From positions 1,612,001 to 1,676,000 of the forward strand of contig NZ_CP045725.1 in assembly GCF_009646095.1 (NCBI RefSeq): 64,000 bases of DNA, in the 5' to 3' direction. Shown here piece after piece: positions 1,324 through 8,768 of the stretch. The stretch comes from Raineyella fluvialis. GTDB taxonomy: Bacteria > Actinomycetota > Actinomycetes > Propionibacteriales > Propionibacteriaceae. The translations under genes were made by a program, and so were the position numbers. The notes under the pieces are model-generated. The model saw only the letters and a program-made list of their open reading frames with translations, had not been told where the DNA came from and searched no databases. Within the stretch, counting starts at the first letter, position 1. The number at the start of each line of letters is the position of its first letter.

Positions 1324-1635
1324 ATGAGTGTCGTCGTCACCGCCGTTTTCTACCCCCTTCCCGGCCGCAGGCATGACCTTGCGGCCGCGATGCGCGCGGG
1401 GATCGAAGCCGTCCATGGTGAGGAGGGCTGCGAGCTCTACGCCATCCATGACGCGGAGGACGGCACCATCACCATGATCGAGAAGTGGGCCAGTGCCGAG
1501 GCGCTCGATGCGCACGCGAAGGGCGAAGCCATCGCCGTGCTCAACCGCGACGTCGAGGGCCTGCTGGCTCAGCCCACGCTCGTCACCCGGATGATGCCGA
1601 TCCCCATGGGGACCGATGAGCAGGGACGGCTCTGA
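1324..1635 (+). CDS. ABM-fold (antibiotic biosynthesis monooxygenase / quinol monooxygenase-like) protein
   Basis: A 103-residue single-domain protein with the dimeric ferredoxin-like ABM pattern: an N-terminal strand (VVVTAVFYPLPG), a helix, then CELYAIHDAEDGTITMIEKW, and a C-terminal strand (LVTRMMPIPMG). The EGCELY and IEKW segments match the family's conserved EGxxxY and ExW positions. Members of this size include YgiN-like quinol monooxygenases and many uncharacterised oxygenases, so the substrate cannot be named. ATG 1324 has AGGAG at 1314-1318. It is a single-gene unit closed by the hairpin at 1663-1698, and nothing ties it to the sugar operon downstream. Confidence 0.75.
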   Translation: MSVVVTAVFYPLPGRRHDLAAAMRAGIEAVHGEEGCELYAIHDAEDGTITMIEKWASAEALDAHAKGEAIAVLNRDVEGLLAQPTLVTRMMPIPMGTDEQGRL

Positions 1636-1662
1636 CGGGCTGACAGCCCGATATACGACGTC

Positions 1663-1698
1663 GAGGCGGGGTGGGATCAGCTGATCCCACCCCGCCTC
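1663..1698. terminator. Perfect 36-bp palindrome, probable terminator of the ABM gene
   Basis: Two 18-base arms beginning GAGGCGGGGTGGGATCAG are exact reverse complements with no loop. It starts 27 bases after the stop codon at 1635. No T-run follows, as is usual for terminators in high-GC actinobacteria; an operator role is not excluded. Confidence 0.6.
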
Positions 1699-1766
1699 CT
1701 CGCTGTCGGGTGCGGTTCGGATACGCCGAAGCAGATGTGCTCGCCATCTCATTGCTCGCTCATCGT

Positions 1767-1782
1767 AGATCCTATAGGATCT
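1767..1782. promoter_or_regulatory. 16-bp perfect palindrome, likely GntR/FCD operator before the kinase operon
   Basis: AGATCCTATAGGATCT is an exact palindrome in an AT-richer patch 49 bases upstream of the ATG at 1831. FadR/FCD-type GntR proteins usually bind short palindromes near promoters, and a gene for such a protein lies at the far end of the same cluster (8025-8768). Pairing the site with that protein is inference. Confidence 0.45.
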
Positions 1783-1830
1783 CGGATATTCCCAGACAGG
1801 GAAGAGCGTCCTCAACGACGAGGAGTGGCG

Positions 1831-3597
1831 ATGGCGTTCCTGGATCATGACCCTGAGACCTTTGCTGCGGCCGCGACCGCAGGATTCGTGGCTGCCCACG
1901 GCGACCTGGTGCGCCAGGTCCCCGGCGGCGTCGTCCGTACGACGCGCAGCGAAGCGGACGAGGTGGCACTCGTCATCGGGGGTGGCTCGGGCCACTTCCC
2001 GGCCTTCGGAGGGCTGGTGGGCCCCGGACTCGCGCACGGCGCGGTGCTGGGCAACATCTTCGCCTCGCCCAGTGCGCACCAAGTGGCCGATGTCGCGCGG
2101 ATCGCCGAGCAGGGCCGGGGGGTACTGCTCAGCTACGGCAACTACGCCGGCGACGTGCTCCAGTTCAACGCCGCGGCCGACCGGCTGCGGCAGAGCGGGA
2201 TCCCTGTGCGGTCGGTGGCGGTCACCGACGACATCTACTCCGCTCCGGCCGAGGAGGCGCACAAGCGTCGCGGCATCGCCGGGGACCTGGTGGTCTTCAA
2301 GGTGGCGGGCGCGGCTGCCGCGGCCGGGGACGACCTCGATGCCGTCGCCCGGGTCGCCGAGGCCGCCAACGCGGCCACCCGCTCCCTCGGCGTCGCCTTC
2401 AGCGGCTGCACCCTCCCTGGTGCCGATCAGCCGCTCTTCCGCGTCCCGCAGGGGCGGATGGCGGTCGGCCTCGGCATCCACGGCGAACCCGGCATCGACG
2501 AGGTCGACGTGCCGACAGCCCGCGGGCTGGCCGAACTGCTGGTCGACAGGCTCCTCGGCGAGGTCCCCGGGGGAGGCGACCCTCGGGGCCGCCGCGTGGT
2601 GGTGATCCTCAACGGTCTGGGGTCCTTCAAGTACGAGGAGATGTACGTCGTCCACGACGAGGTGCGCCGCGTACTGGCAGCGCGCGGGATCGAGATCGCC
2701 GACGCGAAGGTCGGGGAGTTCTGCACGAGCTTCGAGATGAGTGGTATGTCGCTCACCCTCTTCTGGCCGGACGAGGAGCTGGAGTCACTCTGGCGTGCAC
2801 CGGCGCGATCCGCCGCGTACGTCCAGGACGGGACGCCGGTCGCCCAACACGCAGTCGACCTGTCCGAGCAGCGCCTCGCCGCCCTCGATGAGCACGTCTC
2901 CCTGCCGGTCGCGGCGGAGGAATCCCGGGCGTACGTCCCGCTGGTGCAGTCGGCGCTGGCGGAGCTGAGCCGCACCGTCGACAGCCATGTCGACGAGCTG
3001 GGGCGGATCGACGCGATCGCCGGCGACGGGGACCACGGCCTGGGCATGCAGCGGGGCGCGCATGCCGCTCTGGCGGCGGCACGCTCGGCCGACGGGAACG
3101 CGGCAGGAGCGGGCACCGTCCTGCGGCTGGCGGCCGATGCCTGGGCCGACGAGGCCGGCGGTACCTCGGGGGCGCTGTGGGGCCTGATCCTGCGCTCCCT
3201 CGCCGACGCCGTCGGCGACGCGTCCGCTCCCAGCGCCGAGGCGGTCCGACGGGGCGTCCGCGATGCCTGCGACCAGGTGATGACCCAGGGCGGGGCACGC
3301 GAGGGGGACAAGACCATGGTCGACGCGCTGGCGCCGTTCGCGAACGCGCTCGAAGGCGCTGCCGCCCTGCCTCTCGCGGAGGCCTGGCGGGAGGCCGCCG
3401 ACGCCGCGCGGGCCAGCGCCGAGGCGACGGCCGCGATGCTGCCGCGACTCGGCCGGGCCCGGACACACGGGGCGAAGTCCCTGGGCACCCCGGATCCCGG
3501 CGCGGTCTCCTTCGCGCTGATCGTCAACGCGCTGGCCGACCTGTTCGCCGCCTCGTTGCCGGTGCCGGCGGTGTCCGACGCGATCGTGACGGCCTGA
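1831..3597 (+). CDS. Dihydroxyacetone/erythrulose-type kinase (DhaK-DhaL fusion, ATP-dependent)
   Basis: A 588-residue single-chain kinase that phosphorylates short ketoses with ATP. The N-terminal DhaK domain (~1-330) carries GIHGEPG with His217, the residue that binds the ketose carbonyl covalently in this family. The C-terminal DhaL domain (~365-588) has the AGDGDHG nucleotide/Mg loop near residue 398. The frame is open back to 1735, but ATG 1831 is chosen because AGGAG lies at 1821-1825 and homology begins there. It overlaps the next gene by one base (TGATG). Beside a TIM-type isomerase rather than glycerol dehydrogenase genes, L-erythrulose is at least as likely a substrate as dihydroxyacetone (LerK-like). 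The family call is firm; the substrate is inferred. Confidence 0.88.
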   Translation: MAFLDHDPETFAAAATAGFVAAHGDLVRQVPGGVVRTTRSEADEVALVIGGGSGHFPAFGGLVGPGLAHGAVLGNIFASPSAHQVADVARIAEQGRGVLLSYGNYAGDVLQFNAAADRLRQSGIPVRSVAVTDDIYSAPAEEAHKRRGIAGDLVVFKVAGAAAAAGDDLDAVARVAEAANAATRSLGVAFSGCTLPGADQPLFRVPQGRMAVGLGIHGEPGIDEVDVPTARGLAELLVDRLLGEVPGGGDPRGRRVVVILNGLGSFKYEEMYVVHDEVRRVLAARGIEIADAKVGEFCTSFEMSGMSLTLFWPDEELESLWRAPARSAAYVQDGTPVAQHAVDLSEQRLAALDEHVSLPVAAEESRAYVPLVQSALAELSRTVDSHVDELGRIDAIAGDGDHGLGMQRGAHAALAAARSADGNAAGAGTVLRLAADAWADEAGGTSGALWGLILRSLADAVGDASAPSAEAVRRGVRDACDQVMTQGGAREGDKTMVDALAPFANALEGAAALPLAEAWREAADAARASAEATAAMLPRLGRARTHGAKSLGTPDPGAVSFALIVNALADLFAASLPVPAVSDAIVTA

Positions 3598-4376
3598 TGA
3601 GCACCGTCCGCTCCCACGTCGTGCTCGGCACCAGCCTGAAGATGTACTTCAGCCACGCCCGCACCCTGGCCTGGGCCAAGGACGTGGCCGCGATCCTCGC
3701 CGCGGCACCGGCCGTCGCGGACGGACGGGTCGAGTTCTTCGTCGCCCCTTCCTTCCCGGCGCTGCCGGAGGCGGTCCGGATCCTCGCCCCGCATCCGGTC
3801 GCCGCCCAGGACGTCGCGGCCGCCGAGACGGGCGCCTTCACCGGTGAGGTCAGCGCGGGCGAGTTGGCGGAGATCGGCGTACGCCTCGTCGAGATCGGTC
3901 ACGCCGAACGGCGGCGGCTGTTCCGGGAGACCGATGCCGAGATCGCCGCGAAGTGCGCGGTGGTGCTGGGGCAAGGGATGACGCCGGTGCTGTGCGTCGG
4001 CGAGCCGGAGGCGGGTGACCCGTCCACCGCGGCCGACGTCGTGGTCGACCAGGTCGACGCCGCGTTGTCCGCCGCGCTGCCCGCGACCACGCCGCGCCGG
4101 GTGATCGTGGCGTACGAACCGCACTGGGCGATCGGAGCCGCCGAGCCGGCACCGGCCGCGTACGTCCAGGAGACCTGCGGGATCGCCCGGGAGCGACTGC
4201 TGCAGCGCTACCCCGGTCTGACGCTGCTCTACGGAGGCAGCGCGGGGCCCGGGACGTTGACCGCGCTCGGCGATGCGGTCGACGGACTGTTCCTCGGGCG
4301 GTTCGTCCACGATCCGCGCAACCTCGCCGCCGTGATCGACGAGGCCTCCGCGCTGCTCGACTGCTTCACCCACTGA
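3597..4376 (+). CDS. Triose-phosphate isomerase-family enzyme, probably tetrulose-phosphate isomerase (LerI/EryH-like)
   Basis: A 259-residue TIM-barrel isomerase with all three catalytic residues: Lys15 (TSLKMY, where housekeeping TIM has NWKMN), His102 (IGHAERR, instead of GHSERR) and Glu174 (AYEPHWAIG, instead of AYEPVWAIGTG). The phosphate loop YGGSAGP and the LFLGRF end are present. These motif changes are the kind seen in catabolic paralogues such as L-erythrulose-1-phosphate isomerase, not in the glycolytic enzyme. The start overlaps the kinase stop by one base, implying translational coupling and use of the kinase product. An ordinary second TIM cannot be excluded. Confidence 0.82.
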   Translation: MSTVRSHVVLGTSLKMYFSHARTLAWAKDVAAILAAAPAVADGRVEFFVAPSFPALPEAVRILAPHPVAAQDVAAAETGAFTGEVSAGELAEIGVRLVEIGHAERRRLFRETDAEIAAKCAVVLGQGMTPVLCVGEPEAGDPSTAADVVVDQVDAALSAALPATTPRRVIVAYEPHWAIGAAEPAPAAYVQETCGIARERLLQRYPGLTLLYGGSAGPGTLTALGDAVDGLFLGRFVHDPRNLAAVIDEASALLDCFTH

Positions 4377-4453
4377 TCGCCCCGACCTGTCCCGGTACGA
4401 CCGGAGACCCTCGGTGGCCATCGCCACACACGAACGACAAGAAAGAAGGACAC

Positions 4454-5437
4454 ATGTACACGCCAGAGAACTGGCCGATCGCCTGCAAGATGAACTTCGG
4501 CCCCCGGGCCGAGGACGGCTCGCCGATCGCCACCGCTCCCGTCCGCGTCTGGGAGGACCAGCTCGCCCAGGTCGCTGGTGTCGGGTTCACCGAGATCGAC
4601 CCGATGGACGACTGGATCCCGATCGCGGAACTCTCCCCGCAGCGGTTCGAGGAGTTCCGCGGCGCCCTGGACCGGTTCGGCCTCCACGTCGCCGCCATCT
4701 CCATCGGGCGCAACAGTGTCGTCGACGTCGAGCACGGCGAACGGAACGTGGCCACGATCCACGCGACCATCGATCGAGCAGCCGATCTCGGTGCGGAGAT
4801 CGTGAACGTCGGCTTCCAGCAGGCGCTCACCCCGCCGCAGAAGGAGGCCCTGTGGTTCTGGTTGGCGGAGGGCCACCACGACGATCCCGCGCTGCGCCCC
4901 CTGGCCATCGAGCGGGTCCGGGAGCTGTGCGACCACGCGCAGCGCCGCGGTCTGCAGATGAGCCTGGAGATGTACGAGGACGGCTTCCTGGGCACCCCGG
5001 AGGACGCGCTCGCCTTCCTGCGCGACGTCGACCACCCGGCGCTCGGCATCAATCCCGACATCGGTAACCTGATCCGGCTGCACCGGCCGATGCCCACGTA
5101 CGACGTCATGTACGACCAGGTGCTGCCGTACTCCAACTACTGGCACATCAAGAACTACCTGCGCGATGAGGACCCGGCCACCGGCGCGTATTTCTCGGCC
5201 CCCGTGCCCCTCGAGTACGGCGTGATCGACTACCGGACGATCATCCGGCGAGCGTTGCGCGTCGGGTACTCCGGCCCGTTCATGACCGAGCACTACGGCA
5301 GCGACTGGCTCGGCGTCGGGGCCACCAACGCGCGCTACATCCGCGAGGTCCTGCTGCAGGCTCGCAGCCTCATCGAGGCGCGCGGCACGACGTCGCAGGA
5401 GGCGCCTGACCTGTCGTTGAGCGCGGCCCAGGCCTAG
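4454..5437 (+). CDS. Xylose isomerase-like TIM-barrel sugar (phosphate) isomerase/epimerase or decarboxylase
   Basis: A 327-residue AP-endonuclease-2/xylose-isomerase-like barrel. Likely metal ligands appear in order: Glu in SLEMYEDG, Asp in GINPDIGN, His in NYWHIKN and Glu in MTEHYGSD. The ATG at 4454 follows an AAGAAAGAAGGA ribosome site. The family includes tagatose and psicose epimerases, inosose dehydratases and, in published D-apionate catabolism, the 3-oxo-isoapionate decarboxylase OiaC. Its position between a TIM-type isomerase and an NAD dehydrogenase would suit that last role, but sequence alone does not decide it. Confidence 0.75.
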   Translation: MYTPENWPIACKMNFGPRAEDGSPIATAPVRVWEDQLAQVAGVGFTEIDPMDDWIPIAELSPQRFEEFRGALDRFGLHVAAISIGRNSVVDVEHGERNVATIHATIDRAADLGAEIVNVGFQQALTPPQKEALWFWLAEGHHDDPALRPLAIERVRELCDHAQRRGLQMSLEMYEDGFLGTPEDALAFLRDVDHPALGINPDIGNLIRLHRPMPTYDVMYDQVLPYSNYWHIKNYLRDEDPATGAYFSAPVPLEYGVIDYRTIIRRALRVGYSGPFMTEHYGSDWLGVGATNARYIREVLLQARSLIEARGTTSQEAPDLSLSAAQA

Positions 5438-5523
5438 ATCCTCGCCAGCGCGAACAAGAGCCCGGCACGGACGGGCGTACTCACCTTTTCACAGCACCTA
5501 TTACCCAAATCATGGAGGATCTG

Positions 5524-6510
5524 ATGACTCAGGAGATCAGGCGGACCACTGTCGTGGGCGCCGGCTACATGGGCGGCGGCATCGCCCAATCACTCGCCAT
5601 CGCGGGGTTCGACGTCACGATCGCCGACGTCGACGCGTCGGCCGCCGAGCGCGCGTACGCCCGGCTCATCGCCGAGGCACACGAGTTCGAGGACCAGGGC
5701 CTGTACAAGCCCGGGTCGGCGGCCCTCTGCGAGGCCAACATCCGCTGGGCGACGTCCATCGAGGAAGCCGTCGCCGACGCGGACTTCATCGAGGAGGCCG
5801 TCTTCGAGCGCGTGGACATCAAGAAGGCGGTGCTGGAGCGGATCTCCCGGGCCGCGCGGCCCGACGCGATCATCGGCACCAACACGTCGACGATCCCGGT
5901 GCACGTGCTGGTCCCGGCCGTGGCCGGCCCCGAGCGGTTCCTCACCGTCCACTTCTCGAACCCCGCCCCGTTCATCCCCGGTGTCGAACTGGTCGCCGGA
6001 GAGGCCACCCGGCCCGAGGTCATCGCCACGGTGAAGGACATCCTGCAGCGCTGCGGTCGCCAAGGCGCCCAGGTCGCCGACACGCCGGGGATGGTGCTGA
6101 ACCGGCTGCAGTACGTCCTGCTCAAGGAGGCGTGCTCGATCGTCGAGGAGGGCATCGCCACCCCGGAGGACGTCGACACGATCGTACGGACCACGTTCGG
6201 CTTCCGACTCGGGTTCTTCGGCCCGTTCGCGATCGCCGACCAGGCCGGTCTGGACGTCTACGCCAACTGCTTCACGACCTTCGAGGACGCCTTCGGGGAG
6301 CGGCTCGCCACCCCGGCGGTGCTCACCGACGCCGTCAGCGCCAACCGCCTCGGCATCAAGAACGGGCGGGGACTCACCGGCGACTTCGACGACGACACCA
6401 AGGCCGCCCTCATCGCGTACCGCAACAGGGCGTACTCCCGGATGCTCGACCTGGTCCAGGAGATGGGTCCGGCCCCGGCCGGCACCAAGGCCACCGTCAG
6501 CGTCGACTGA
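5524..6510 (+). CDS. NAD-dependent dehydrogenase of the 3-hydroxyacyl-CoA dehydrogenase superfamily, probably acting on a sugar acid
   Basis: A 328-residue protein. A Rossmann domain starts at once (VVGAGYMGGGIAQSLAIAG), followed by the NTSTIPV and VHFSNPAPFIPGVELV segments that hold the catalytic His and Asn of the 3HCDH fold, then a C-terminal helical domain (GMVLNRLQYVLLKEACS). An upstream ATG at 5512 is in frame, but ATG 5524 has GGAGG at 5514-5518 and is preferred. In this superfamily lambda-crystallin-type L-gulonate dehydrogenases and related enzymes oxidise sugar acids, and no other fatty-acid gene lies nearby. The sugar-acid role is inferred from context. Confidence 0.78.
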   Translation: MTQEIRRTTVVGAGYMGGGIAQSLAIAGFDVTIADVDASAAERAYARLIAEAHEFEDQGLYKPGSAALCEANIRWATSIEEAVADADFIEEAVFERVDIKKAVLERISRAARPDAIIGTNTSTIPVHVLVPAVAGPERFLTVHFSNPAPFIPGVELVAGEATRPEVIATVKDILQRCGRQGAQVADTPGMVLNRLQYVLLKEACSIVEEGIATPEDVDTIVRTTFGFRLGFFGPFAIADQAGLDVYANCFTTFEDAFGERLATPAVLTDAVSANRLGIKNGRGLTGDFDDDTKAALIAYRNRAYSRMLDLVQEMGPAPAGTKATVSVD

Positions 6511-6563
6511 GGTCGACAACACCCAACTCACCCACTCGCCACGCAAGGCTTTGGAGGATCAAC

Positions 6564-7919
6564 GTGGATTCATCAAACGTGGTTATCGACGAGAACAAAC
6601 TGATCGGGCGAATCACCCGGCGGATCGTGCCGTTCGTCATGGTGCTGTACACCGTGGCGTACGTCGACCGGTCGGTCATCGGATTCGCGAAGCTCCAGAT
6701 GGGGGCGGATGTCCACCTCTCCGACGGAGCGTACGGCCTGGGAGCGGGCCTCTTCTTCCTCGGCTACTTCCTCTTCGAGGTGCCGTCGAACTTCGTCCTG
6801 CCGCGCGTGGGGGCGCGCAAGTGGTTCACCCGGATCCTCGTCACCTGGGGCCTGGTCACCATGGCGACGGCGCTCACCCGCAACCCGGCGAGCTTCTACT
6901 CGCTGCGCTTCCTGCTCGGCGTCGCCGAGGCCGGGTTCTACCCGGGCATCCTCTACTACCTGACGCAGTGGTACCCGCAGCGGCATCGGACCCGCGCCAC
7001 CGGGACGTTCGTGCTCGCGGCACCGTTGGCGTTCCTGATCATGGGTCCACTGGCGGGCTGGATGCTCGGGTTGGACTGGTTCGGGCTGCGGGGCTGGCAC
7101 TGGATGTTCCTGCTCTGCGGCGGGGTCGCCGTCCTGGCTGGTATCCCGACGATGTTCTGGCTGAAGGACACGCCGCGCGACGCGCCGTGGATCAGCCCTG
7201 CCGAGGCCCAGTGGATCGAGGACGAACTGGCTCGTGACAAGGTCGAGCTCGGTCAGGTCGAGCACCACAACCCCTTCGCGGCGCTGGGGTCGAAGTACGT
7301 GTGGGGATTCGCGTTGCTGTTCTTCCCCTCGACCGTCGGGGTCTACGGGCTCAGCTTCTGGGTGCCCTCGGTGGTGAAGGAATTCACCAAGAGCAACATG
7401 GCGGTCGGTTGGCTGTCCACCATTCCGTACGTGTTCGGATTCATCGGGATCCTGCTGACCTCGCGCTGGGCCAGCCGGTTCAAGGAGAACTGGTACCCGC
7501 TGGCGGCCATCTTCGCCGTCGCCGCCGTGGGGATCGGACTGGCCGGGGCCGTGCGTTCGCCGGGGCTGGAGTTGGCCGCGATGTCGCTGGCAGCCTTCTG
7601 CCTCTACTCCATCGCCGGCGTCTTCTGGCCGCTGCCCTCCCGCTACCTGGTGGGGGCGACCGCGGCGATCGGCATCGCCTTCGTCAACTCGTTCGGCAAC
7701 ATCGGCGGCTTCGTCGGTCCGTACGCGGTGGGCGCGATCTCGGACGCCACCGGGACTCCCCGCAACGGCATGTACTTCCTCGCCGTCGTGCTCGCACTGG
7801 GAGCTGTCGGCACGCTGGTGCTGAAGGCGATGTGGGGTGGCAAGAACCCGGTGACCTCCATGGTCGGGGCCGGCACGGCCGGCTCCCCCCAGCAGGAGGA
7901 CAGCCCGGTGGGTCAGTGA
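6564..7919 (+). CDS. MFS transporter, anion:cation symporter (ACS) family
   Basis: A 451-residue, 12-helix major facilitator. It has the family's early YTVAYVDRSVIGFAKLQM helix, the EVPSNFVLPRVGARKWFTRI loop between helices 2 and 3, and GVAEAGFYPGILYYLTQWYP in helix 4, all typical of ACS permeases such as tartrate, phthalate and galactonate carriers. The frame is open far upstream, but GTG 6564 is chosen because GGAGG is at 6553-6557 and the hydrophobic core follows. It is the last gene of the operon and should import a carboxylated substrate, which supports a sugar acid as the pathway input. Confidence 0.85.
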   Translation: MDSSNVVIDENKLIGRITRRIVPFVMVLYTVAYVDRSVIGFAKLQMGADVHLSDGAYGLGAGLFFLGYFLFEVPSNFVLPRVGARKWFTRILVTWGLVTMATALTRNPASFYSLRFLLGVAEAGFYPGILYYLTQWYPQRHRTRATGTFVLAAPLAFLIMGPLAGWMLGLDWFGLRGWHWMFLLCGGVAVLAGIPTMFWLKDTPRDAPWISPAEAQWIEDELARDKVELGQVEHHNPFAALGSKYVWGFALLFFPSTVGVYGLSFWVPSVVKEFTKSNMAVGWLSTIPYVFGFIGILLTSRWASRFKENWYPLAAIFAVAAVGIGLAGAVRSPGLELAAMSLAAFCLYSIAGVFWPLPSRYLVGATAAIGIAFVNSFGNIGGFVGPYAVGAISDATGTPRNGMYFLAVVLALGAVGTLVLKAMWGGKNPVTSMVGAGTAGSPQQEDSPVGQ

Positions 7920-7963
7920 CCGGGACTCTCCGGGTGCGGGCAACCCCGCAGCGATGACGCAAG

Positions 7964-8009
7964 CGGCCGGGGCGGCGGATGACGAGGGTGTCATCCGCCG
8001 CCCCGGCCG
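7964..8009. terminator. Bidirectional terminator between MFS and GntR genes
   Basis: Perfect 20-base arms (7964-7983 and 7990-8009, first arm CGGCCGGGGCGGCGGATGAC) around a 6-base loop. It sits between two convergent stop codons (7919 and 8025), so it can end both transcripts. Confidence 0.85.
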
Positions 8010-8024
8010 TACGTCGTCCTCGGC

Positions 8025-8768
8025 TCAGTCGGTCGGGTGCGGCCGCCACAACCCTGGCGGTGTCCCGTCCTCGCTGACGGTGTAGCGGACCCGCTCGAGG
8101 TGGAAGCGCATCGCTGCCACCGCCCCGGCGGTGTCGCCTCGGCGGACAGCCTCCAGGATGGCGTGGTGCTCGGGCACGGCCACGCTGACGTCGGAGACGC
8201 CGATACCGACGGTCTGGCGCATTCTGTGCATCCGGAACGAGAGGGAATCGACGGCCTGGGCGAGGTAGCGATTGCCGCAGTGGTTCAGGATCGCCTCGTG
8301 GAAGGACCAGTCGTCCTCGAAATAGCGGCGGACGTATTCGTGCACGTTTTCGTGGCCGGGCTCGAGCAATTCCTGCGCCGATCGCTCATGACGTGAGAAT
8401 GCGGCTTCCAGATCGGGAAGGACTTCATCGGCGTGGCGCATGGACCGCTCGATCGCGCCGCTCTCCAGGACCAGTCGGGCGTCCGCCAGTTCATACATCT
8501 GCGCTTGCGACATGGGCGGTGAGACCCGATAGCCGCGACGTACGCTACGGCGGACGAGACCGGTCGGCTCCAGCCGGGCCAACGCCTCACGGACGGGCGT
8601 CGGGGAAACCCCGAGGGATTGTGCGAGACCGTCGATGGAAAGTGGTGTGTCGGGTTCGAGGGTGCCCCAGGTGAGCATGTCCAACAAGGCGTCGTAGACG
8701 TCGTCGGGAAGCGCCTTCGCCTTAATGCGGCCGAGCGGATGCGCGGCGCTTTCCTCCGATTCCTTCAC
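8025..8768 (-). CDS. GntR-family transcriptional regulator, FCD subfamily
   Basis: A 247-residue regulator. The N-terminal winged helix-turn-helix (~17-85) includes SIDGLAQSLGVSPTPVREAL and the wing GLVRRSVRRGYRVSP. The C-terminal all-helical FCD domain carries the metal/ligand pattern (DDWSFHEAIL, PEHHAIL, MRFHLERV). The start is GTG at 8768. FCD regulators usually sense the organic acid or sugar acid whose operon they control. The gene converges on the sugar operon and is the likely repressor acting at the palindrome 1767-1782. Confidence 0.85.
   Translation of the reverse strand: MKESEESAAHPLGRIKAKALPDDVYDALLDMLTWGTLEPDTPLSIDGLAQSLGVSPTPVREALARLEPTGLVRRSVRRGYRVSPPMSQAQMYELADARLVLESGAIERSMRHADEVLPDLEAAFSRHERSAQELLEPGHENVHEYVRRYFEDDWSFHEAILNHCGNRYLAQAVDSLSFRMHRMRQTVGIGVSDVSVAVPEHHAILEAVRRGDTAGAVAAMRFHLERVRYTVSEDGTPPGLWRPHPTD

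What the first reader, a model, noticed from the sequence alone, without database searches (positions are those of the whole stretch)
1767..8768. Sugar-acid operon resembling the D-apionate/L-erythrulose route
The set NAD dehydrogenase, TIM-barrel enzyme, DhaK-type kinase, TIM-type isomerase, ACS transporter and FCD regulator parallels published D-apionate catabolism (ApnO, OiaC, LerK, LerI). The kinase neighbour is an isomerase with non-glycolytic active-site motifs. DerI and the lactonase are not seen. The operator-like palindrome at 1767-1782 is well placed.
Basis: partly seen in the sequence, partly recalled or inferred. Interest (0 to 1): 0.6.

Follow-up and report, generated by a model that had tools for sequence, protein, structure and literature searches.

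The report
Sugar-acid operon feeding an erythrulose pathway
This is a small gene cluster, with relatives in many other bacteria, that probably turns an unidentified sugar acid into erythrulose and then into central metabolism, using different front-end enzymes from the published D-apionate route it was thought to be.

Summary
The gene set and the palindrome are real: DhaK-type kinase, TPI-like isomerase, AP_endonuc_2 TIM barrel, 3-hydroxyacyl-CoA-dehydrogenase-family (3HCDH) enzyme, ACS transporter and FCD-GntR regulator at 1831-8768, palindrome at 1767-1782. The back end fits LerK/LerI: kinase and isomerase group with those beside the D-apionate oxidoisomerase (ApnO) family; RpiB genes of the type found in such modules lie elsewhere in the genome. 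The front end is not ApnO/OiaC: the ApnO family (PGDH_C) and its partner TIM barrel are absent from this genome, and the window's barrel is no closer to that barrel than to unrelated families. Relatives show two modules converging on one kinase type; some genomes carry both. The 3HCDH enzyme is swapped with PdxA in relatives (15 and 14 of 40 loci, never both); both families oxidise beta-hydroxy acids. The palindrome core ATCCTATAGGAT (at most 1 mismatch) lies upstream of module genes in 18 of 40 loci, in none of 15 ApnO-family loci, and once in this genome. Best reading: a locally regulated route from an imported hydroxy acid, probably C5, by 3-oxidation and loss of CO2 to erythrulose. Substrate and the barrel's exact step are unproven.

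The parts
1767..1782 (.). Operator-like perfect palindrome AGATCCTATAGGATCT (core ATCCTATAGGAT 1769-1780), 48 bases before the kinase start
   Evidence: single in genome; core (at most 1 mismatch) upstream of module genes in 18 of 40 loci, window included; 0 of 15 type A loci
1831..3597 (+). Fused DhaK-DhaL kinase, L-erythrulose kinase (LerK)-like
   Evidence: tree: inside a supported 13-row set (95/99) with 7 kinases of ApnO-family loci
3597..4376 (+). [quoted passage not shown] Ser in place of catalytic-loop Asn (GTSLKM)
4454..5437 (+). AP_endonuc_2 TIM barrel of the 5TNV family (Mg-bound structure); step not proven (3-oxo acid decarboxylase or tetrulose 3-epimerase)
5524..6510 (+). 3HCDH-family NAD dehydrogenase, predicted beta-hydroxy acid 3-dehydrogenase (Ser122, His143, Glu155, Asn193 invariant)
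6564..7919 (+). ACS-type MFS transporter (anion:cation symporter), predicted sugar-acid importer
8025..8768 (-). FCD-domain GntR regulator, convergent with the operon, presumed to bind the palindrome

Best explanation
The stretch is one catabolic operon with its own regulator. The ACS transporter brings in a hydroxy acid, most likely a five-carbon sugar acid other than D-apionate. The 3HCDH-family enzyme oxidises its 3-hydroxyl with NAD to a 3-oxo (beta-keto) acid; loss of CO2 gives erythrulose. The 5TNV-family TIM barrel acts on this keto compound: either it is the decarboxylase, standing where OiaC stands in the apionate route (about 55%), or it is a tetrulose 3-epimerase that turns D- into L-erythrulose while decarboxylation is spontaneous (about 30%). 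The DhaK-type kinase (LerK) makes L-erythrulose 1-phosphate, the TPI-like isomerase (LerI) makes D-erythrulose 4-phosphate, and an RpiB-family isomerase (DerI role) encoded elsewhere in the genome makes D-erythrose 4-phosphate. The FCD-GntR protein represses the operon at ATCCTATAGGAT until the substrate or an intermediate appears. Shown here: gene families, absence of ApnO and its partner barrel, shared kinase/isomerase clades, dehydrogenase swap, operator conservation. Inferred: substrate, reaction order, the barrel's step, who binds the operator and with what sign.
For: Kinase and isomerase lie in supported sets that mix ApnO-family loci (type A), 3HCDH loci (type B) and PdxA loci (type C): kinase 95/99, A 7, B 5, C 1; isomerase 97/98, A 8, B 5, C 1, 2 unlabelled. 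In L038, L040 and L049, the closest 3HCDH-bearing loci by barrel identity, the 3HCDH module has no kinase directly beside it and shares its contig with a type A barrel-PGDH_C-kinase cluster, PGDH_C lying 8 to 17 kb from the barrel; in L038 that kinase carries the module's operator (1 mismatch). Within 10 kb of the barrel, RpiB is in 10 of 15 3HCDH loci, kinase in 13 (in L038 it is the type A one), TIM in 10, FCD in 14. 3HCDH and PdxA never share a locus: 15 and 14 of 40, both 0, neither 11 (hypergeometric 1.9e-4, uncorrected for kinship). Catalytic Ser/His/Asn invariant in 14 of 14. One distant copy of the dehydrogenase (52%) lies about 2 kb from a BKACE beta-keto acid cleavage enzyme (L172). 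Operator: 24 sites in 18 of 40 loci; the next best of the 90 permuted palindromes has 1 site; 0 sites in 701,876 control bases. Ser for Asn in the TPI loop in all 29 ler-type sequences in which that region was aligned, as in the solved L-erythrulose-1-phosphate isomerase 11ef. Two RpiB genes elsewhere in the genome match the same model as the RpiB genes of the modules.
Against: No gene in the stretch fixes the substrate. With PdxA, which usually oxidises and decarboxylates by itself (recalled), a separate decarboxylase would be superfluous, yet the barrel is kept; this favours the epimerase reading or another step. The nearest structures after 5TNV are the isomerase Art22 (Z 25.9) and many ketose 3-epimerases near Z 25, and the homology of the two barrels is not special. 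11 of 40 barrel loci have neither 3HCDH nor PdxA. 6 of 11 type B kinases fall outside the window's set, and two of ten type B isomerases belong to a second, distant lineage. 6 of 14 loci found by the dehydrogenase alone (48-53% identity) show no barrel (one of the 6, L174, is only 6.2 kb), so the dehydrogenase family is wider than this module. No RpiB lies in the window's operon, and the two candidates elsewhere are named RPI_actino (ribose-5-phosphate isomerase) by NCBIfam, their scores for its DerI model (141-145 bits) being below its cut-off of 240. 22 of 40 loci have no operator-like site within 1 mismatch upstream of a tested module gene.
Confidence: 0.6

Rival explanations
1. The published D-apionate route after all: the 3HCDH enzyme is an unrelated stand-in for ApnO (oxidation at C2 plus hydroxymethyl migration) and the barrel is a divergent OiaC.
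For: Same position and same downstream kinase/isomerase clades; both barrels keep an invariant E-D-H-E set.
Against: PGDH_C and the partner barrel absent; 5 of 14 tested genomes with the 3HCDH module also hold PGDH_C, as do two more, G569 and G639, where it would be redundant; the barrels are no closer than unrelated families; 0 of 15 class PGDH_C loci had the window's barrel or 3HCDH enzyme within the fetched flanks; 3HCDH enzymes oxidise beta-hydroxyls.
Confidence: 0.12
2. A four-carbon acid (tetronate) route: 3-oxidation and decarboxylation give dihydroxyacetone, and kinase plus TPI-like enzyme make dihydroxyacetone phosphate and glyceraldehyde 3-phosphate.
For: DhaK and TPI folds; PdxA and DUF1537-kinase neighbours in some relatives; PdxA2 serves tetronate pathways (recalled).
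Against: RpiB, useless for triose phosphates, is in 10 of 15 3HCDH loci; kinase/isomerase group with those of ApnO-family loci; Ser in place of the TPI Asn as in a solved L-erythrulose-1-phosphate isomerase; this genome already has a separate cluster of DUF1537 kinase, PdxA, RpiB and TIM.
Confidence: 0.15
3. The barrel is a tetrulose (erythrulose) 3-epimerase and the acid is a D-pentonate; 3-oxidation gives D-erythrulose by spontaneous decarboxylation and the barrel makes L-erythrulose. (A sub-case of the best explanation for the barrel's step.)
For: Many ketose 3-epimerases are among the nearest structures after 5TNV; the barrel is kept with both 3HCDH and PdxA.
Against: Fold similarity does not name the reaction; several AP_endonuc_2 functions score alike.
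Confidence: 0.3

Closest known systems
D-apionate catabolism ApnO-OiaC-LerK-LerI-DerI (Carter et al. 2018, Nat Chem Biol 14:696; not held; the pathway is recalled, the reference seen as cited in PMC6302742)
   Same: Acid transporter, NAD dehydrogenase, AP_endonuc_2 barrel, DhaK-type kinase, TPI-like isomerase; kinase and isomerase in the same clades
   Different: Dehydrogenase is 3HCDH, not PGDH_C/KARI-like; barrel is the 327-residue 5TNV family, not the 270-residue one; no lactonase recognised in the stretch; its operator is not found in 15 ApnO-family loci within 1 mismatch
Tetritol pathway of Mycolicibacterium smegmatis (EltD, LerK, LerI, DerI; passages seen in PMC10733421 and PMC12780249)
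   Same: L-erythrulose kinase and L-erythrulose-1-phosphate isomerase
   Different: No polyol dehydrogenase or ABC transporter here; a separate tetritol-type cluster lies at 1.11 Mb of this genome
L-gulonate 3-dehydrogenase (lambda-crystallin, PDB 3ado/3f3s) followed by 3-keto-gulonate decarboxylation (function and pathway recalled)
   Same: 3HCDH family; 3-oxidation of a sugar acid, then beta-decarboxylation to a ketose
   Different: Remote similarity (95 and 96 bits); C6 to C5 there, probably C5 to C4 here
PDB 5TNV, Mg-bound TIM barrel of M. smegmatis, title names no function
   Same: 61% identity and Z 47.5 to the predicted P0003 model; its 91% relative in L108 has the same module TIM-RpiB-kinase-FCD-barrel-3HCDH
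   Different: GntP permease in place of ACS in L108

Membership tests
D-apionate route (ApnO/OiaC) | ApnO-type PGDH_C dehydrogenase (PF16896); that PGDH_C is ApnO is recalled plus neighbourhood | tested here: not met
   0 in own genome; positive control 4.8e-73 in R. etli p42f, 20 of 296 class genomes
D-apionate route (ApnO/OiaC) | OiaC-type 270-residue TIM barrel beside PGDH_C (that this is OiaC is recalled plus neighbourhood) | tested here: not met
   no hit of P0009 in own genome; relatives of the query in 11 other loci at 32-56%; P0003 not closer to it than to 5 control families
D-apionate route (ApnO/OiaC) | D-apionate lactonase ApnL in the cluster | tested here: inconclusive
   none among the 7 proteins of 1324-8768 scanned; the rest of the window and genome was not searched for it
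LerK/LerI/DerI erythrulose module | DhaK-L kinase and TPI-like isomerase in one clade with those of ApnO-family clusters | tested here: met
LerK/LerI/DerI erythrulose module | TPI-like enzyme with Ser for Asn in the GNWKM loop, as in solved 11ef | tested here: met
LerK/LerI/DerI erythrulose module | DerI-type RpiB | tested here: inconclusive
   none in the operon; two genome copies (1110412, 1276183) fall among module RpiB genes (modest support) and match the same model RPI_actino above cut-off (198 and 183 vs 168); NCBIfam's DerI model is below cut-off for them and for the 4 actinobacterial module RpiB proteins scanned
LerK/LerI/DerI erythrulose module | activity on L-erythrulose and its 1-phosphate | not testable with these tools
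   needs enzyme assay
3HCDH beta-hydroxy acid dehydrogenases | catalytic Ser, His, Asn | tested here: met
   S122, H143, N193 in 14 of 14; that these are the catalytic residues is recalled
Ketose 3-epimerases (DTE/DPE) | closest fold and activity | tested here: inconclusive
   among the nearest structures after 5TNV, but Z near 25 for several functions
FCD-GntR regulon with operator ATCCTATAGGAT | site in the locus and FCD neighbour | tested here: met
   all 22 loci with a site (at most 1 mismatch) have an FCD gene, against 9 of the 18 without; binding itself not tested

The most novel reading that the evidence does not exclude
A previously undescribed route in which an unidentified C5 sugar acid is oxidised at C3 and decarboxylated to erythrulose, run as one regulon (FCD-GntR on ATCCTATAGGAT) across Actinomycetota, with a related gene set in Alphaproteobacteria, where unrelated dehydrogenases (3HCDH or PdxA, perhaps SDR) and unrelated importers (ACS, TCT, GntP) are interchangeable around a constant barrel and a LerK/LerI/DerI back end.
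Probability: 0.4. Interest if true: 0.68.

Novelty: new variant of a known kind. Interest (0 to 1): 0.5.

Why it matters
It would give a function to the 5TNV barrel family, whose title names none, and to a 3HCDH subgroup whose best family names are fatty-acid-type enzymes. It would show that the LerK/LerI/DerI module is a hub that takes erythrulose from more than one acid. The mutually exclusive 3HCDH and PdxA genes look like a clean case of unrelated enzymes filling one slot, and the operator makes the regulon predictable in new genomes. It also warns against naming such clusters 'apionate' from the kinase and isomerase alone.

Tried and rejected
Rejected: ApnO/OiaC identity. The hhalign match between the two barrels looked supportive (E 2.8e-11), but the barrel matches five unrelated AP_endonuc_2 control families at 1e-18 to 2e-9, so it says nothing special. 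Rejected as main reading: plain dihydroxyacetone/TPI metabolism, because of RpiB, clade and loop residue. The P0004 model had mean pLDDT 70.3 with long stretches under 50 and was not used. The P0003 fold searches could not tell decarboxylase from epimerase. The guess that Cupriavidus necator pBB2 would hold OiaC led nowhere in the stretch looked at; pBB1 holds an ApnO-type gene but its record carries no annotation. A sigma-70/terminator scan of 1600-1900 found nothing.

Literature: the two key papers (10.1038/s41589-018-0067-7 = PMC6435334, and 10.1021/jacs.5b08968) are not held and are recalled only. Seen as passages: PMC11747546, PMC12780249, PMC13001218, PMC8914248, PMC6302742, PMC10733421. 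Searches were seen as listings (13 and 124 empty); no listed title described this gene set, and one search listed 6 papers, none about bacterial sugar-acid regulation by title. The library is open-licence PMC only, so this is no proof that the module is unpublished.

Rows dropped: L051 (barrel hit with a stop inside) and L062 (3HCDH hit with a stop inside) were left out of alignments A2/A3 respectively but kept in the locus tallies; 28 of the 40 barrels went into A2, and 14 of the 15 3HCDH rows into A3. L071 and L072 have an annotated GntR regulator that the FCD query did not match, so the FCD tally is a lower bound.


Full report
OBSERVATION. The stretch holds, on +, a fused DhaK-DhaL kinase (1831-3597), a TPI-like isomerase (3597-4376), an AP_endonuc_2 TIM barrel (4454-5437), a 3-hydroxyacyl-CoA-dehydrogenase-family (3HCDH) enzyme (5524-6510) and an ACS-type transporter (6564-7919), and on - an FCD-GntR regulator (8025-8768). 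The palindrome at 1767-1782 is perfect, the only site in the window within 3 mismatches, and single in the 3,649,865-base genome: with up to 3 mismatches two other sites appear, both at 3; the 12-base core occurs once with up to 1 mismatch.

WHAT THE PUBLISHED ROUTE LOOKS LIKE IN SEQUENCE. In R. etli p42f curated models hit ApnL (1049.7 bits, cut-off 750), OiaX (783.9, cut-off 700) and DerI (257.9, cut-off 240); the OiaK model gave 473 bits, below its cut-off of 700. The same cluster has a 'phosphogluconate dehydrogenase C-terminal domain' (PGDH_C) protein, TPI and DhaK/DhaL. P. sprentiae has a gene named oiaK next to the same PGDH_C family. Pantoea At-9b has MFS-kinase-TPI-TIM barrel (270 aa, P0009)-PGDH_C (P0010) with RpiB nearby. 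P0010 is closest in the PDB to 5T57 (1.8e-58), and its N-terminal part weakly to ketol-acid reductoisomerase (1.8e-4), which fits an oxidoisomerase. That PGDH_C is ApnO and P0009 is OiaC rests on these neighbourhoods and on recall of Carter et al. 2018, which I could not read.

THE WINDOW IS NOT THAT ROUTE. PF16896 is absent from the genome, while the same search rings at 4.8e-73 in p42f and in 20 of 296 class genomes. P0009 finds nothing in the genome. In 15 class loci around PGDH_C (L093-L107), P0009-like barrels are adjacent in 10 (one at 31%), the window's barrel and 3HCDH enzyme in none, within the flanks fetched. Profile comparison of the two barrels gives E 2.8e-11, but five unrelated control families score 1e-18 to 2e-9. 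I call the PGDH_C module type A, the 3HCDH module type B and the PdxA variant type C.

RELATIVES OF THE WINDOW MODULE. A scan of genome contigs with P0003 gave 32 loci. Within 10 kb of the barrel: FCD 31 of 40, kinase 25, TIM 19, RpiB 17, 3HCDH 15, PdxA 14, SDR 20, ACS 17, TctA 12, GntP 3. 3HCDH and PdxA never occur together; 11 loci have neither (hypergeometric 1.9e-4, not corrected for kinship or near-copies). 3HCDH loci go with ACS (11 of 15), PdxA loci with TctA (12 of 14). PdxA and 3HCDH are unrelated, but members of both oxidise beta-hydroxy acids (recalled), so I read them as filling one slot. A test from the other side, with P0004 as query at E 1e-70, gave 16 of 394 class genomes, 18 matches. 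Four of these were already in hand; of the 14 other loci fetched, 8 have the barrel near it (dehydrogenase identity 52-73%) and 6, at 48-53%, do not (L174 is only 6.2 kb long). Of those 6, L170 and L174 have a HisD homolog next to SDR and 3HCDH; L172 and L175 have a protein that matches AttM-type lactonases below cut-off, and L172 a BKACE gene.

BACK END. The kinase tree puts the window in a supported 13-row set of A 7, B 5, C 1 (95/99); the isomerase tree in a 16-row set of A 8, B 5, C 1 and 2 unlabelled (97/98). The other 6 of 11 type B kinases lie outside that set, and 2 of 10 type B isomerases (L046, L108), with 3 type C ones, belong to a second lineage at 36-38% identity. The isomerase carries GTSLKM; all 29 ler-type rows with that region aligned have Ser where this genome's own TPI has Asn, as does the solved L-erythrulose-1-phosphate isomerase 11ef, GTSWKM. 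RpiB is missing in the window operon. Two of the genome's four RpiB genes fall among the module RpiB genes in the tree (branch supports modest) and match the same NCBIfam model, RPI_actino, above cut-off, as do the 4 actinobacterial module RpiB proteins scanned; NCBIfam's DerI model is below its cut-off for all of them. So the DerI role is by neighbourhood, not by model name. One of the two lies beside a second LerK-like kinase in an ABC-transporter/Zn-dehydrogenase cluster at 1.11 Mb, the other beside a TIM, PdxA and DUF1537 kinase at 1.276 Mb.

TWO ROUTES, ONE HUB. Of 14 genomes with the type B module tested for PGDH_C, 5 have it and 9, the window's own included, do not; G569 and G639 also hold both. 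In L038, L040 and L049, the closest 3HCDH-bearing loci by barrel identity, the type B module has no kinase directly beside it and shares its contig with a type A cluster with kinase, PGDH_C lying 8 to 17 kb from the barrel; in L038 that kinase has the operator ATCCTATAGGAA about 66 bases upstream. L045, which has no 3HCDH gene, shows the same neighbourhood. Coexistence argues for different substrates; the shared kinase argues for a shared product, L-erythrulose.

OPERATOR. ATCCTATAGGAT with at most 1 mismatch: 34 sites in 22 of 40 loci, 24 of them 450 bases upstream to 60 bases inside the start of a tested module gene, in 18 loci; 0 in 15 type A loci (2 sites at 2 mismatches). Among the 90 palindromes made by permuting the half-site letters the real one has 24 such sites and the next 1. 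Control DNA of 701,876 bases has none within 1 mismatch. All 22 loci with a site have an FCD gene, against 9 of the 18 without; L071 and L072, counted as without, have an annotated GntR regulator that the query missed. Four of the 14 loci found through P0004 have the site too, all with barrel and FCD.

ENZYMES. P0004: Ser122, His143, Glu155 and Asn193 invariant in 14 of 14; nearest solved protein 5-formyl-3-hydroxy-2-methylpyridine 4-carboxylate 5-dehydrogenase (3.7e-51). P0003: Glu172, Asp202, His231, Glu279 and Lys233 invariant in 28 of 28; model pLDDT 90.5; 5TNV Z 47.5, then the isomerase Art22 (25.9), ketose 3-epimerases and others near Z 25. 5TNV is 91% identical to the barrel of L108, whose module is TIM-RpiB-kinase-FCD-barrel-3HCDH-GntP.

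MECHANISM AND LIMITS. A 3-oxo C5 acid losing CO2 gives erythrulose; L-pentonates would give L-erythrulose directly, D-pentonates would need an epimerase, and isoapionate-type acids would give the same 3-oxo acid as the apionate route. This is chemical inference; none was tested. The substrate is unknown, and the barrel's step is open between decarboxylation and epimerisation.

VERDICT. Observation confirmed; the apionate reading is half right (back end) and half wrong (front end). It is a new variant of a known kind: a sugar-acid operon that joins the erythrulose hub through different enzymes.

Noticed in passing
window 1663-1698: A 36-base perfect palindrome (GAGGCGGGGTGGGATCAGCTGATCCCACCCCGCCTC) between the ABM-domain gene and the operon folds as a very stable hairpin (z -6.5); the terminator scan did not list it. 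Possibly a transcription boundary.
   Followed up: partly
window 1324-1635: Small antibiotic-biosynthesis-monooxygenase (ABM) domain gene upstream; it lies before the hairpin and does not seem to belong to the operon.
   Followed up: no
L125 (own genome 1102000-1121900): Second LerK-like kinase and RpiB with a sugar ABC transporter, Zn-dependent dehydrogenase and AraD-like protein: a tetritol-type cluster by inference.
   Followed up: partly
L126 (own genome 1266000-1285900): MFS transporter, DUF1537-type kinase (below the D-threonate kinase cut-off), PdxA, RpiB and a GTSWKM-type TIM: a tetronate-type cluster by inference.
   Followed up: partly
own genome 473979-474904: A Dak1 kinase match split into two overlapping frames, perhaps a frameshifted copy; one of five Dak1 loci.
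   Followed up: no
L061, L066, L067: Microbacterium loci carry the exact operator core twice, before the kinase and before the barrel.
   Followed up: yes
L052-L055: Streptomyces loci have a more distant barrel (44-47%) with SDR genes and a D-2-hydroxyacid-dehydrogenase-like gene around it (the latter named from its sequence, not scanned), and no kinase, TIM or FCD hit within 10 kb: perhaps a different pathway with the same barrel family.
   Followed up: partly
L170, L174: Related 3HCDH genes sit with an SDR and a histidinol-dehydrogenase homolog, an arrangement reminiscent of sulfonate (DHPS) catabolism (recalled), without the barrel in the DNA held.
   Followed up: partly
L172: A related 3HCDH gene lies near a lactonase-like protein (AttM model, below cut-off) and a BKACE beta-keto acid cleavage enzyme.
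   Followed up: partly
L051:10001-10900; L062:10996-11979: The barrel hit of L051 and the 3HCDH hit of L062 each contain one stop codon within the aligned stretch; decayed genes or end overrun, not resolved.
   Followed up: no
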